The translations under genes were made by a program, and so were the position numbers. From positions 1 to 64,000 of the forward strand of contig JABJQG010000013.1 of NCBI GenBank assembly GCA_018663505.1: a stretch of DNA of 64,000 nt, given 5' to 3'. The stretch comes from Pseudobdellovibrionaceae bacterium. GTDB taxonomy: Bacteria > Bdellovibrionota > Bdellovibrionia > Bdellovibrionales > UBA1609. Under the pieces are notes generated by a model. That model did not search any database. It saw only the letters and a program-made list of their open reading frames with translations, and was not told the DNA's origin. Every line of letters begins with the position of its first letter. The stretch's first letter is position 1. Positions 12,960-17,339 of this stretch are shown one piece after another.

Positions 12960-13778
12960 ATGAGATTAGGCAAATTATCTGTTTTAGTATTTTTGATGAG
13001 TGGCTATGTATACGGGAATAACGCAGACATAGGTGTTTCTTTACATGCAAAGCAAAAAGGTCATTTTATTATTGAGAAAGAGCAAAGTAGTGATAATTTG
13101 CCGGACGAGTTTACAAACCCTTATGGTTATTGTGACAATGTGGAATCGGTGGATCCCAGGTTACATGTTGGTTATAACGTAGAGTCTATATTAGCTTATA
13201 ATGATGGTTTTTATGATCATGCAAATTTAAATATGCGTTCTGTGATCACTAAAGTGGAAGAGGCTTCTTATATAAGGAAAATGGTCATAACAGGGGAAAC
13301 AAGAGGGGTGAATATTCCCAATGCAATTTTTGATTTTAAGCATAGCTATCAAAAATTGAGCGAACACAGTGATTGGACATCAAGCCTGTTGTCACAAATT
13401 GGTATTCCTGATTCCAATGTACTTCATTATTCAACTCATTGTGAATACACGGTGGTAAATACACCTGGGGTTTCTACCGTAAATTATTATACAGGTACTT
13501 ATGTATTAGATTCAGGCAAAAGGTTGAAAGCTGCAAGAACAGTGTGGAAAACAGCCCCTGGGGAATACAAATGTGTATTATTGGACGAGAATCAAATTGA
13601 AATTGACCAGTGGGTAGAGCAAAGTATCGCCGGGTACGATGAAAGTATTTCTACACAAGATCTTCCTAATACATCAGATAATTGTAGATCTGAAAACTTA
13701 TTCTCTGAATCTAAAAGAACAAATACAAGAGGTCGGGTTTTAACCTCATACCTAAGTGAAGTATTTAGCCACAATTAG
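12960..13778 (+). CDS. Exported protein of unknown function
   Basis: 272 aa with a signal peptide ending near GYVYG (residue 19). The mature part is polar and beta-rich. It has four scattered Cys (PYGYCDN, THCEYTV, EYKCVLLD, SDNCRSE), suggesting two disulfides and an exported location. No family motif was recognised. A strong GGGGGG ribosome site supports the start. It follows oppC by 89 bp but has its own likely promoter, so it is probably not part of the transporter operon. Confidence 0.75.
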   Translation: MRLGKLSVLVFLMSGYVYGNNADIGVSLHAKQKGHFIIEKEQSSDNLPDEFTNPYGYCDNVESVDPRLHVGYNVESILAYNDGFYDHANLNMRSVITKVEEASYIRKMVITGETRGVNIPNAIFDFKHSYQKLSEHSDWTSSLLSQIGIPDSNVLHYSTHCEYTVVNTPGVSTVNYYTGTYVLDSGKRLKAARTVWKTAPGEYKCVLLDENQIEIDQWVEQSIAGYDESISTQDLPNTSDNCRSENLFSESKRTNTRGRVLTSYLSEVFSHN

Positions 13779-14011: not shown

Positions 14012-14431
14012 ATGAAAACTATATTGACTTTAATGAGCTTACTATTTTCATTAAATGCATTGGCTTTGATCGTACAAACAGATGATCGACTATCTAATGG
14101 CTTGCTTGTTTACCAGTCCGAGGAGTCTGCAAATATAGTTCTTATTGAAAAGTACTTACCTGAATCGGAAGGTTCTTTAGGTGTAGGAGAAGTTTCTCTT
14201 AAAGTTCAGAATGATAGTTATACTTTTAGTTATGATAAGGGTTTTTCTGTGGACCAACTTGCTAAAGTTATTTCTCAATCTCTAAAAGCTTCAGGCTTTA
14301 ATTTGAACCTTAAATTATTTTTATCTTCAGGCGAAATGGTCATGGATTGGAACGAGGAAGACGGCTTAGTTCAGGGCCAAGCCTACCTAGGACAAGTATC
14401 TCATGCCCAACTTATGGTCTTAGATAAGTAA
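14012..14431 (+). CDS. Small exported protein of unknown function
   Basis: 139 aa with a signal peptide (MKTILTLMSLLFSLNALA) cleaved near residue 18. The mature 120 residues lack Cys and alternate polar and hydrophobic positions as in a small beta protein. A GGGGG ribosome site lies 8 bases before the ATG. No family was recognised. It sits between another exported protein and a divergently oriented exported GNAT-like protein, in a run of genes that all encode signal peptides. Confidence 0.7.
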   Translation: MKTILTLMSLLFSLNALALIVQTDDRLSNGLLVYQSEESANIVLIEKYLPESEGSLGVGEVSLKVQNDSYTFSYDKGFSVDQLAKVISQSLKASGFNLNLKLFLSSGEMVMDWNEEDGLVQGQAYLGQVSHAQLMVLDK

Positions 14432-14518: not shown

Positions 14519-15193
14519 TTATTGATGAACCTCACTATTGCGCTTTTTTGACTTGCTAGAAAAGTAAAGTATTATAGTTAGTTTTTTTGAATCATCAATG
14601 TATTTATAATGATCAGCTATAACCACCTGTACATTGTTAAAGCCATGCTTGATTAGAGTTTTTCCCCTTGGGGTGTCAAAAGCTGCTTGAGTTAAAATTT
14701 CATTGCGTAATTCTGTATGCATATTTTTTTCTTCTAGATTTTTAAAGTAATGCAGTAAATAGGCTTCACCAAGTTTAAATTGATCAGCATTTTTTTCATT
14801 GAAAGTTAGCTTGTTTTTAAATATTTTTTGGTGAACCTGTTGAGTTACAGATTTTAGAAACGTTTCTTTATTTGTACCAGCTAAAGTTGTCTCAACAAAA
14901 ATTGGTGATTCAATCTCCATAATTTTTCTCACTAGAGCTGTTTGAACTCCTTTTTTTCTCATTTCATTAAATGTATGTGATGTATCTATTTTTATTGTGG
15001 AACCATTGTTGTAGCGTGAGTAAACAATGAGCCCCCCTGGATTATTGTTATAAAGTGCCACTAATTGTGCAGAGTCATGGTTGAAACTTGTGTACTCCAC
15101 ATCAATTTTATTATTAGCATTTGCAAATATTTGAGGACAATATATTGAGTAAGCATTTGAGTGCAGAAGTATAAATAATGCAATAAGGGGCAC
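14519..15193 (-). CDS. Exported GNAT-like protein, paralogue of the gene at 16662
   Basis: 224 aa from GTG at 15193. It resembles a GCN5-type acetyltransferase core: a strand-rich N-terminus, then MRKKGVQTALVRKIME, which matches the acetyl-CoA-binding R-x-x-G-x-x motif A, and late TPRGKTLIKHGFNNV like the final GNAT helix-strand. It shares blocks with the product of 16662-17339 (GTN-E-F, VHQK, LG-YL--YFK, AAF-TP-GKTL). It has an N-terminal export signal. The signal would be more complete if translation began at an in-frame ATT at 15226, which has AAAGG nine bases upstream. An exported GNAT is unusual because acetyl-CoA is cytoplasmic. Its target is unknown. Confidence 0.6.
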   Translation of the reverse strand: MPLIALFILLHSNAYSIYCPQIFANANNKIDVEYTSFNHDSAQLVALYNNNPGGLIVYSRYNNGSTIKIDTSHTFNEMRKKGVQTALVRKIMEIESPIFVETTLAGTNKETFLKSVTQQVHQKIFKNKLTFNEKNADQFKLGEAYLLHYFKNLEEKNMHTELRNEILTQAAFDTPRGKTLIKHGFNNVQVVIADHYKYIDDSKKLTIILYFSSKSKKRNSEVHQ

Positions 15194-15520
15194 TTTTTGA
15201 ATAATATATGTATAAAAAAATCTAATCTCTCAGTGCCTTTGTTAGAATAAACATTGCAGTGAACTGCCATGTTAAGTTGTTCTTATATGAGCTTAAATAT
15301 GCAGATAACATAATACCACTAAGGAACGTGAGTATGTTATGATACATCAATTTTTGAAAAAACTAAAATGGGTGTGTAGAAGTTCGACGATCTAGAGTTA
15401 CACTTTGTTTAATAATTAGGCTACATAGTAATCGAAGTCCGTTTTTCATTGGGAATTATGCAATCACAGTAGTATTAACTAACAGAGTTAATTGGTTTAT
15501 TTATTGCACATGAATGGATT

Positions 15521-16423
15521 ATGAAGTTTTCAATAAATTTTAAATTAATCTTCAAAAATGCACACATAAAGTATGTTGTTTTATCAGTTCTCTTTATTAT
15601 TGTGGCACTGCCTGTGCGTGCCACAGAATTAGAGTCAATAATTAGAGAGCTTATGAGCTCACCAGTAAAAACTTATGGTCCAAATTGTTGGAATTCTGCT
15701 TTGAATGTGGTGGGAGCGAATGTTTCTGTGAGAAGCACCACTAAACCTGAATTTTGGTTTTGGATGAAGTCTCCTTTTTGTAAAAAACTTGGACCTGATG
15801 ATAAGTTAAAAAAAGGGGATGTTGGATCCTTGTTCTGGAAAAATCTAGGGAACTACCATAGTTTTATTAACCTAAACGAAAAGTATGTTTTTTCTAAAGA
15901 CAGTCCAGGTTTAGATGATAAATATGAAATAAAAAGATATGAGGAAATGTTTCATGAAACTAAGAGAAGGTATGCGCAGAGATGTCGTGGTACTGAGTAC
16001 TACCTCAAAAAAATAAATTGTGAATTAGAAATCGTGTACCACCGCTGTGAAGCATTGCCATTAGAGTTTATGTTAGGTAATGAATTATTATCTCAATTAC
16101 TAACAGATATTTCTGGATACGAAGATACCATTGAAAAATATGTACGTACGAATGATCATCAAATGATACCTTTAATTTCAAGTGCATTTGAGAAACTCGG
16201 ACTACGTCTTGTAGATTTGCTGAATGTTAAATACACTGGTAATGAGGAGTTCATGCGCAAGGCTATTACCCATCGAATTGTGGGGAATTTACTAGTAAAT
16301 TGGGGCAACATCGAGGGTCTTAGTGTAAAAGCATTGAATGCAGTAGAGGTAGCTGAGCTCACTCTTTTAGAAGGTCGTAAGCATGTTCCGCGCAAGGCCT
16401 CAGACCTGAACCTGAGTCGGTGA
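15521..16423 (+). CDS. Exported Cys/His hydrolase-like protein of unknown family
   Basis: 300 aa with an N-terminal membrane or signal segment (about residues 18-34, ending PVRA). It then has YGPNCWNSALNVVG (Cys56), KKGDVGSLFW (Gly99-Asp100) and NYHSFINL (His113). This compact Cys...GD...His order matches NlpC/P60-type thiol hydrolases and parallels the protein at 3124-4182. The C-terminal 150 residues are helical and contain a Cys-rich stretch (QRCRGTEYYLKKINCELE). It lies between two exported GNAT-like paralogues on the opposite strand. The catalytic assignment is inferred from motif order only. Confidence 0.6.
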   Translation: MKFSINFKLIFKNAHIKYVVLSVLFIIVALPVRATELESIIRELMSSPVKTYGPNCWNSALNVVGANVSVRSTTKPEFWFWMKSPFCKKLGPDDKLKKGDVGSLFWKNLGNYHSFINLNEKYVFSKDSPGLDDKYEIKRYEEMFHETKRRYAQRCRGTEYYLKKINCELEIVYHRCEALPLEFMLGNELLSQLLTDISGYEDTIEKYVRTNDHQMIPLISSAFEKLGLRLVDLLNVKYTGNEEFMRKAITHRIVGNLLVNWGNIEGLSVKALNAVEVAELTLLEGRKHVPRKASDLNLSR

Positions 16424-16661
16424 CAACTCTTGAAAGTTGCGATTTAGAGCCATTCAACGTTCCTATGTGAAAGAGGGCAAGACAGTATTGAAAACACATC
16501 CAGTTATTACGACTTGTGGCAAATTTTCTGACCATTCTTTTTACCCAGCCATTATCAATTTTATAACGGCGTATAATCATTTTTAAACCAATTTCTGCGA
16601 ATTTAGATTTATTTTCATCTTTTTCTATTTTGAGAAGATAGTTTAGGTGGTGCACTTATAG

Positions 16662-17339
16662 TTAAATATTTGGTTTTTCTTTAGAGAAGTATAAATAGAT
16701 ACTTAAATCTTTGCTCCCATCATCTGTTCGATGAAGTCCCTCGTAAGTTATATTTACACGGTCAAAGCCAGCCTTTTCTAATGTTTTACCTGTTGGAGTA
16801 TTAAATGCAGCATCCTCAATTATACTCTCCTGCATGGCTCTATAGAATTTATTTTGTTCGAGGGCTTTAAAGTAATTCATAAGATAGGTTTTTCCTAGTT
16901 GAGCTTGTTTTTTAATATCTATATGTTTTCTAATCACTTCATTAATTAATTTTTGATGAACACCCTCAGCAATGGCAAGGAAGAAAGCTTCTTGATTAGT
17001 CCCTTGAATGGAGTAGCTAACAATCTTTGGTTGCTCCGTTTCAATAATTTTTTCAACTAATTTTGATTGCACTCCTTTTCTTCTATGAGTTTTTTTCACT
17101 AATCCGGAAGTGAGAAAAACAACTTCTCCATTTTGGCCTGAAAGGTACTTTGCAAATCCAATAATTTTTGTGTTAACTTTTGCTATTAAGGTATTGCTAG
17201 AGGTTTGTGATTTTATGTAGGAAACTTCAACAGCTCTGGAGGAAAAATAGTTTGTGCAAACTGAGGCATGTGATTGAGTAGCGAAACAAAGAGCTACATT
17301 CACAAGGGTTATTTTAATTATATAATACTTCGATTTCAT
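16662..17339 (-). CDS. Exported GNAT-like protein, paralogue of the gene at 14519
   Basis: 225 aa. The signal peptide ends near QSHAS (residue 26). The GNAT-like core contains TSGLVKKTHRRKGVQSKLVE, with a good R-R-x-G-V acetyl-CoA loop, then a helical insert and TPTGKTLEKAGFDRV near the C-terminus. It is clearly homologous over its length to the product of 14519-15226, so a duplication is likely. The GNAT call is by motif. The presence of a cleavable export signal on such a fold is the odd point. A GAGA ribosome site precedes the ATG. Confidence 0.65.
   Translation of the reverse strand: MKSKYYIIKITLVNVALCFATQSHASVCTNYFSSRAVEVSYIKSQTSSNTLIAKVNTKIIGFAKYLSGQNGEVVFLTSGLVKKTHRRKGVQSKLVEKIIETEQPKIVSYSIQGTNQEAFFLAIAEGVHQKLINEVIRKHIDIKKQAQLGKTYLMNYFKALEQNKFYRAMQESIIEDAAFNTPTGKTLEKAGFDRVNITYEGLHRTDDGSKDLSIYLYFSKEKPNI

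What the first reader, a model, noticed from the sequence alone, without database searches (positions are those of the whole stretch)
14519..17339. Pair of exported GNAT-like proteins
Two homologous proteins carry a GNAT-type R-x-x-G acetyl-CoA motif behind N-terminal export signals. Acetyl-CoA is not available in the periplasm or outside, so they may be delivered into another cell's cytoplasm, or the fold may have been reused. They flank an exported Cys/His hydrolase-like gene, forming a small cluster of possible effectors.
Basis: partly seen in the sequence, partly recalled or inferred. Interest (0 to 1): 0.58.

Follow-up and report, generated by a model that had tools for sequence, protein, structure and literature searches.

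The report
Exported acetyltransferase-fold proteins of predatory bacteria
Two neighbouring genes encode exported proteins with the fold of acetyl-CoA-using enzymes, and they belong to an apparently undescribed family of exported proteins scattered through the Bdellovibrio phylum that may act inside other cells.

Summary
The proteins at 14519-15193 (-) and 16662-17339 (-) are paralogues (32% identity over 212 aa). The second passes Pfam's cut-off for Acetyltransf_1. Its AlphaFold2 model (pLDDT 77, pTM 0.74) matches GNAT structures. Both N-termini look like Sec signal peptides; the first protein has no ATG start. Close homologues are absent from 46 other genomes of its family. Iterated profile searches of 368 genomes of the phylum found 41 proteins in 33 genomes. 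They share RxxG-like motif A, an invariant Asn and a TP-x-x-[KR] ... GF motif after a helical insertion. 39 of 41 have a signal-like N-terminus; 0 of 12 ordinary GNATs do. Named relatives are Bdellovibrionales. Some members are large multidomain proteins: one also carries CdiA_C, one Gln_deamidase_2, and one has a close relative with a different C-terminus. No conserved partner gene was seen. Best reading: Sec-exported effectors, probably acyltransferases, working where acetyl-CoA exists (prey cytoplasm or leaked contents). Delivery and catalysis are inferred. Main rival: a reused GNAT fold. The middle gene is a separate, widespread exported family.

The parts
16662..17339 (-). gene for exported GNAT-fold protein, 225 aa (P0002)
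17265..17339 (-). predicted Sec signal peptide, residues 1-25 (MKSKYYIIKITLVNVALCFATQSHA)
   Evidence: read; heuristic
17067..17084 (-). motif A RRKGVQ (R86-x-x-G89), CoA pyrophosphate-binding motif
16995..16997 (-). Asn115, invariant in 41 of 41 family rows, end of the strand after motif A
16764..16799 (-). C-terminal family motif TPTGKTLEKAGF (residues 181-192)
14519..15193 (-). gene for the paralogue, 224 aa from GTG (P0001); start uncertain, open frame extends to 15229
14942..14959 (-). motif A RKKGVQ of P0001
14639..14674 (-). C-terminal family motif TPRGKTLIKHGF of P0001
15521..16423 (+). adjacent gene, exported Cys/His hydrolase-like protein, 300 aa (P0003); separate family, not shown to be a partner
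15686..15688 (+). Cys56 of P0003 (GPNCWN), conserved in 14 of 14 aligned homologues
15857..15859 (+). His113 of P0003 (YHSF), conserved in 14 of 14 aligned homologues

Best explanation
The two proteins are members of a family of Sec-exported GNAT-fold proteins of Bdellovibrionota, scattered in a minority of genomes. The signal peptide takes them across the inner membrane (predicted). A type II secretion system secretin is encoded on the same contig and such a system could carry them out (inferred). They then act as secreted effectors where acetyl-CoA or another acyl-CoA is present, most likely the cytoplasm of a prey bacterium or its leaked contents in the bdelloplast (inferred). There they would bind the CoA pyrophosphate through R-x-x-G and transfer an acyl group to an unknown acceptor, through an active site altered by the helical insertion and the TP-x-x-[KR] ... 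GF motif (inferred). Shown: homology, predicted fold, motif conservation and signal-like N-termini. Not shown: delivery, cofactor binding, catalysis, target.
For: Fold: Pfam; A8 profile against PDB sequences, best E 5.4e-6, the named matches shown being GNATs; hhalign to ordinary GNATs 96% probability; AF2 model pLDDT 77, pTM 0.74; Foldseek and VIA-align rows are GNATs, best Z 10.7, rmsd 3.2, 101 aligned. Motif A retained in both window proteins; R/Q/K at position 1 in 37 and G at position 4 in 31 of 40 rows with letters there. Export: 39 of 41 members against 0 of 12 distinct ordinary GNATs and 125 of 252 background ORFs under the same loose test. Effector context: CdiA_C in L064 and Gln_deamidase_2 in L073, both in proteins with signal-like N-termini; N-terminal part shared at 76% identity with a different C-terminus in L081; scattered distribution, 33 of 368 genomes. 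Route: GspD of the own genome scores 544 bits, cut-off 351. B. bacteriovorus Sec leaders secrete NanoLuc into the supernatant, and Bd0468-mCherry reaches the bdelloplast (PMC12622784, passages).
Against: No experiment. It is not known that the source organism is a predator. 9 of 40 rows lack the Gly of motif A, so part of the family may not bind CoA in the usual way. The Tyr that many GNATs have four residues before the G of GF (recalled) is Leu in both window proteins and mostly Arg in the family. No immunity-like or other partner gene is conserved. The window proteins stand alone and carry no known toxin domain. How they would enter a cytoplasm is unexplained. P0001 lacks a good start codon.
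Confidence: 0.5

Rival explanations
1. The GNAT fold was reused outside the cytoplasm for another task, such as binding peptidoglycan fragments, peptides or another nucleotide, and no longer uses acetyl-CoA.
For: Acetyl-CoA is not expected outside cytoplasms (general knowledge). 9 of 40 rows lack the motif A Gly and the usual Tyr is absent. A family-specific TP-x-x-[KR] motif points to a changed site.
Against: R-x-x-G is retained in both window proteins and in most rows, which is hard to explain without CoA binding.
Confidence: 0.27
2. They are enzymes of the organism's own periplasm that use a non-CoA or locally supplied acyl donor to modify envelope components.
For: Signal peptides with no known dedicated secretion signal. 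GNAT-like enzymes with other donors are known (FemX-type, recalled; tRNA-linked donors are discussed in PMC12419801, passages).
Against: Scattered distribution (33 of 368 genomes), shared polypeptides with CdiA_C and Gln_deamidase_2 and a swapped C-terminus fit conflict proteins better than a housekeeping role.
Confidence: 0.13
3. The N-terminal hydrophobic stretches do not export the proteins, or one or both genes are decaying, so nothing special happens.
For: P0001 lacks an ATG and lacks a positive n-region from its GTG. The signal-peptide test used here is loose: 125 of 252 background ORFs pass.
Against: 39 of 41 members pass against 0 of 12 ordinary GNATs. 19 of the 21 members that were not used to build the search profile also pass. 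Motifs are conserved between paralogues only 32% identical.
Confidence: 0.1

Closest known systems
GNAT superfamily (Pfam PF00583 and its clan); nearest solved folds include EctA (6sjy), nourseothricin acetyltransferase (5c82) and aminoglycoside acetyltransferases
   Same: fold, order of elements, motif A R-x-x-G, Asn after the following strand, GF motif
   Different: exported; helical insertion between the Asn and the GF motif (66 residues from Asn to TP in both window proteins, 19-79 in the family); TP-x-x-[KR] motif; usual Tyr missing
VipF (Lpg0103), Legionella GNAT effector
   Same: GNAT-fold protein delivered into another cell, where acetyl-CoA is available (PMC10936415, passages); appears in the VIA-align list, 7wx6, Z 9.2, rmsd 2.9, 102 aligned
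   Different: tandem GNAT delivered by a type IVB system into eukaryotes; no sequence relationship was shown here
Polymorphic toxin / CDI proteins (CdiA_C, PF18451)
   Same: one family member carries CdiA_C; another has a close relative sharing its N-terminal part with a different C-terminus
   Different: no immunity gene found; window proteins are single-domain; GNAT and acetyltransferase are not mentioned in the held text of the 2012 survey (PMC3482391, word search of the first 300,000 characters)
GNAT toxins of type II toxin-antitoxin systems
   Same: GNAT fold (recalled; an abstract on the class is in the listing)
   Different: those act in the cell that makes them and have an antitoxin gene (recalled); these are exported and no partner gene was found

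Membership tests
GNAT superfamily | significant match to a curated GNAT model | tested here: met
   P0002 Acetyltransf_1 26.8 bits, cut-off 20.7; P0001 alone is below cut-off at 14.2 bits
GNAT superfamily | motif A, R/Q-x-x-G (the sixth place, G/A in the textbook form, is not strict; recalled) | tested here: met
   RRKGVQ and RKKGVQ; sixth residue is Gln in both; family counts
GNAT superfamily | GNAT fold | tested here: met
   AF2 model pLDDT 77; Foldseek best E 2.5e-5; VIA-align best Z 10.7, rmsd 3.2, 101 aligned
GNAT superfamily | acyl-CoA binding and acyl transfer | not testable with these tools
   needs biochemistry
Sec-exported proteins | N-terminal signal peptide with a cleavage-like site | tested here: inconclusive
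   P0002 clear by eye and by a home-made test; P0001 start uncertain; SignalP not available
Polymorphic toxin systems | shared N-terminal region with exchanged C-terminal domains | tested here: inconclusive
   seen in one relative's locus (L081), not for the window genes
Polymorphic toxin systems | cognate immunity gene next to the toxin | tested here: not met
   no conserved neighbour in the family loci beyond two closely related genomes and a housekeeping gene
VipF-type GNAT effectors | tandem GNAT domains and a type IVB delivery signal | tested here: not met
   single GNAT domain with a Sec-type leader
Type II TA GNAT toxins | cytoplasmic toxin with an adjacent antitoxin | tested here: not met
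   signal-like leader; neighbours are P0003 and a regulator-like gene before the his region, both on the other strand (his names recalled)

The most novel reading that the evidence does not exclude
Predatory Bdellovibrionota own a family of exported acyltransferase domains, mobile between single-domain proteins and giant multidomain toxins, that chemically modify targets in the prey using the prey's own acetyl-CoA. GNATs would then be a recurrent, Sec-delivered warhead of bacterial predation.
Probability: 0.33. Interest if true: 0.8.

Novelty: new variant of a known kind. Interest (0 to 1): 0.57.

Why it matters
GNATs are regarded as cytoplasmic enzymes because acetyl-CoA is cytoplasmic. A family whose members nearly all carry export-like signals, and which shares polypeptides with known interbacterial toxin domains, gives a direct test of whether a predator draws on its prey's acetyl-CoA. 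It also adds a candidate catalytic domain to the poorly known secreted arsenal of Bdellovibrio-like bacteria.

Tried and rejected
First AF2 model on two rows had pLDDT 40 and was not used beyond a hint of element order. Close-homologue searches: nothing in plasmids or phages with P0002, in plasmids with L084, or in viral contigs. The first genome-contig scan found nothing; the second found three loci, all Bdellovibrionales, and they turned out to be proteins already in hand. Chance or unrelated hits dropped after reading: L012, L013 (a DinG-like protein), L014 and L016 (ParB-like). L033 was dropped as a solute-binding protein. Ordinary GNATs kept only as controls: L009, L015, L018, L031, L038-L047. 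G192:C1:1906061 (E 8.1e-7) was dropped as an ordinary GNAT lacking the TP motif. L011, an exported protein of the same taxonomic family sharing only the C-terminal motif, was left out of the counts. L052-L055 showed no convincing member. A conserved partner gene was sought and not found; the SufE-like gene beside two members is housekeeping (name recalled). PADLOC gave no match. Gln_deamidase_2 in the own genome: none found, but the controls did not ring either, so this is uninformative. Distribution outside the phylum is untested except for the narrow pattern scans, because the wider search needs a genome handle from another phylum.

Papers: PMC12419801, PMC12546842, PMC12622784 and PMC10936415 were seen as passages only; PMC3482391 as a word search without hits; others only in search listings. 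Phrase search for exported, secreted or extracellular GNAT and periplasmic acetyl-CoA: 0 papers in the held library. Bdellovibrio with GNAT: 14 papers, none of which by title describes this family. Further searches. Most subscription papers are not in that library.

Full report
What is there. The minus-strand ORFs 16662-17339 (P0002, 225 aa, ATG) and 14519-15193 (P0001, 224 aa from GTG) are paralogues, 32% identical over 212 aa. Between them, on the plus strand, lies P0003 (15521-16423, 300 aa). P0002 matches Pfam Acetyltransf_1 at 26.8 bits, above the curated 20.7. P0001 alone reaches only 14.2 bits. P0002 has a normal-looking leader ending SHA|SVC. P0001's leader from GTG has no Lys/Arg before its core, and no ATG/GTG/TTG occurs upstream in the open frame, which begins at 15229. 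Its start, and perhaps its health, is uncertain.

Relatives. Protein searches found no homologue in the 46 other genomes of the taxonomic family (47 searched with the own one), and none in plasmids, phages or viral contigs. A two-row profile over 368 genomes of the phylum pointed to two proteins with the same architecture, L008 and L010. Adding them (A3) and then going to 20 rows (A7) uncovered a family. I count 41 proteins in 33 of 368 genomes at E up to 2.4e-7, in ten taxonomic families of the phylum. The next match (8.1e-7) is an ordinary GNAT and was dropped. Twenty-one of the 41 were not used to build the profile. A named-genome scan returned three of these proteins, from records titled Bdellovibrionaceae or Bdellovibrionales. 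One of them, L062, is the same protein as L026 from G041, which the search places in the window's own family. The own genome has just these two members.

Anatomy. In the 41-row alignment A8, the Asn after the strand that follows motif A is invariant (41 of 41). Motif A has R/Q/K at position 1 in 37 and G at position 4 in 31 of the 40 rows with letters there. A C-terminal motif follows: T 37, P 37, K/R 40 of 41, then G 39 and F 33 of 41. From the Asn to the T of TP are 19 to 79 residues (66 in both window proteins). Textbook GNATs run from Asn to GF in about a dozen residues (recalled), so this family carries a helical insertion there. The Tyr that many GNATs place four residues before the G of GF (recalled) is Leu in both window proteins and Arg in 21 of 41 rows.

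Fold. The A8 profile against all PDB sequences found 80 sequences up to E 1. The 60 shown are acetyltransferases, other GNATs (some recognised from memory) or unnamed proteins; the best is nourseothricin acetyltransferase, E 5.4e-6, which also pairs its APAIHAYRRMGF segment weakly with the family motif. Only 11 of 41 members match Acetyltransf_1 on their own at E 0.01. hhalign to three ordinary GNATs of the same phylum gave 96%. AlphaFold2 on P0002 with five rows gave pLDDT 77 and pTM 0.74, with strands and helices in GNAT order plus two extra helices. Foldseek and VIA-align listed GNAT structures (best E 2.5e-5; best Z 10.7, rmsd 3.2, 101 aligned). TM-scores normalised to the model are modest (0.30-0.44 in the rows shown), as expected with the insertion and a shallow alignment.

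Export. A home-made leader test was met by 39 of 41 members. The two misses are L063, whose frame is cut by a stop, and L078. The test is loose: 125 of 252 other ORFs in the same loci pass it. Of ordinary GNATs from the same searches the script listed 15 rows with none passing. One row (L049) is a cut piece of family member L064 and two are duplicates, which leaves 0 of 12. Fisher p is 3.4e-10 for 39 of 41 against 0 of 12, nominal because the sequences are related. Among the 21 members outside the profile, 19 pass.

Context. Ten large proteins of the family loci were scanned with Pfam (nine members and the 911-aa relative in L081) and nine further proteins (eight members and L011). L064 (1864 aa, cut by the contig end) carries CdiA_C at 1675-1764 (43.6 bits, cut-off 26.6) after the family domain at 1345-1456. 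L073 carries Gln_deamidase_2 at 94-194 (96.7 bits, cut-off 25) before the domain at 317-418. Both family domains were found only with the family profile, not with Pfam GNAT models, and L064 has a degenerate motif A. L088 carries DUF7790. L062 has a HEYQH zincin-like motif by eye, with no Pfam match. Most of the others had no known second domain. In L081 a neighbouring 911-aa ORF shares 361 aligned positions at 76% identity with the 702-aa member but ends differently. No gene is conserved beside the family apart from the two closely related genomes G250/G251 and a few pairs such as a SufE-like gene.

The middle gene. P0003 has homologues in 40 of 140 genomes of the order, the own one included. 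Cys56 and His113 are conserved in 14 of 14 aligned homologues, so 'Cys/His hydrolase-like' is fair. It is a separate and commoner family, and its neighbourhood with the GNAT pair looks incidental.

Mechanism. Sec export of such leaders is documented in B. bacteriovorus: native leaders secrete NanoLuc, and Bd0468-mCherry enters the bdelloplast (PMC12622784, passages). The own genome has a GspD on the same contig (544 bits). With R-x-x-G kept and acetyl-CoA available only in a cytoplasm or its leaked contents, the most economical reading is a secreted effector acting in or on prey. Each step after export is inference. The main alternative is a reused fold, favoured by the missing Tyr and by the 9 of 40 rows without the motif A Gly.

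Known or new. No paper in the held library uses the phrases exported, secreted or extracellular GNAT. The 2012 polymorphic-toxin survey does not mention GNAT, acetyltransferase or Bdellovibrio in its held text. I file it as a new variant of a known kind: GNAT superfamily by fold and motif, unusual by export, insertion and context. It is not filed as a polymorphic toxin system, because the immunity gene was looked for and not found.

Noticed in passing
15521-16423: P0003 is a member of a widespread exported family with GPNCWN Cys and YHSF-like His; 40 of 140 genomes of the order have relatives. Nature of the hydrolase unknown, no Pfam match.
   Followed up: partly
12960-13778 and 14012-14431: Two further plus-strand ORFs with signal-like N-termini and no significant Pfam or NCBIfam match, so five consecutive genes between a transporter operon and the his region look exported.
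   Followed up: no
L064 1486-7077: Protein of at least 1864 aa with a signal-like N-terminus and a CdiA_C domain, a candidate contact-dependent toxin in Bdellovibrionota.
   Followed up: partly
L081 2-10024: Group of large exported proteins in G250; two share 76% identity over 361 positions but differ in their C-terminal parts.
   Followed up: partly
L062 2612-5335: 908-aa exported protein with the GNAT-like domain in the middle and a HEYQH zincin-like motif after it; no Pfam match.
   Followed up: no
L011 1465-2043: Exported 193-aa protein of the same taxonomic family sharing only the C-terminal motif (AAFDTWSGKQAQRYGFDKVNI), perhaps a more divergent branch.
   Followed up: no
16359-16655: A 98-aa minus-strand ORF overlaps the end of P0003; probably spurious.
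   Followed up: no
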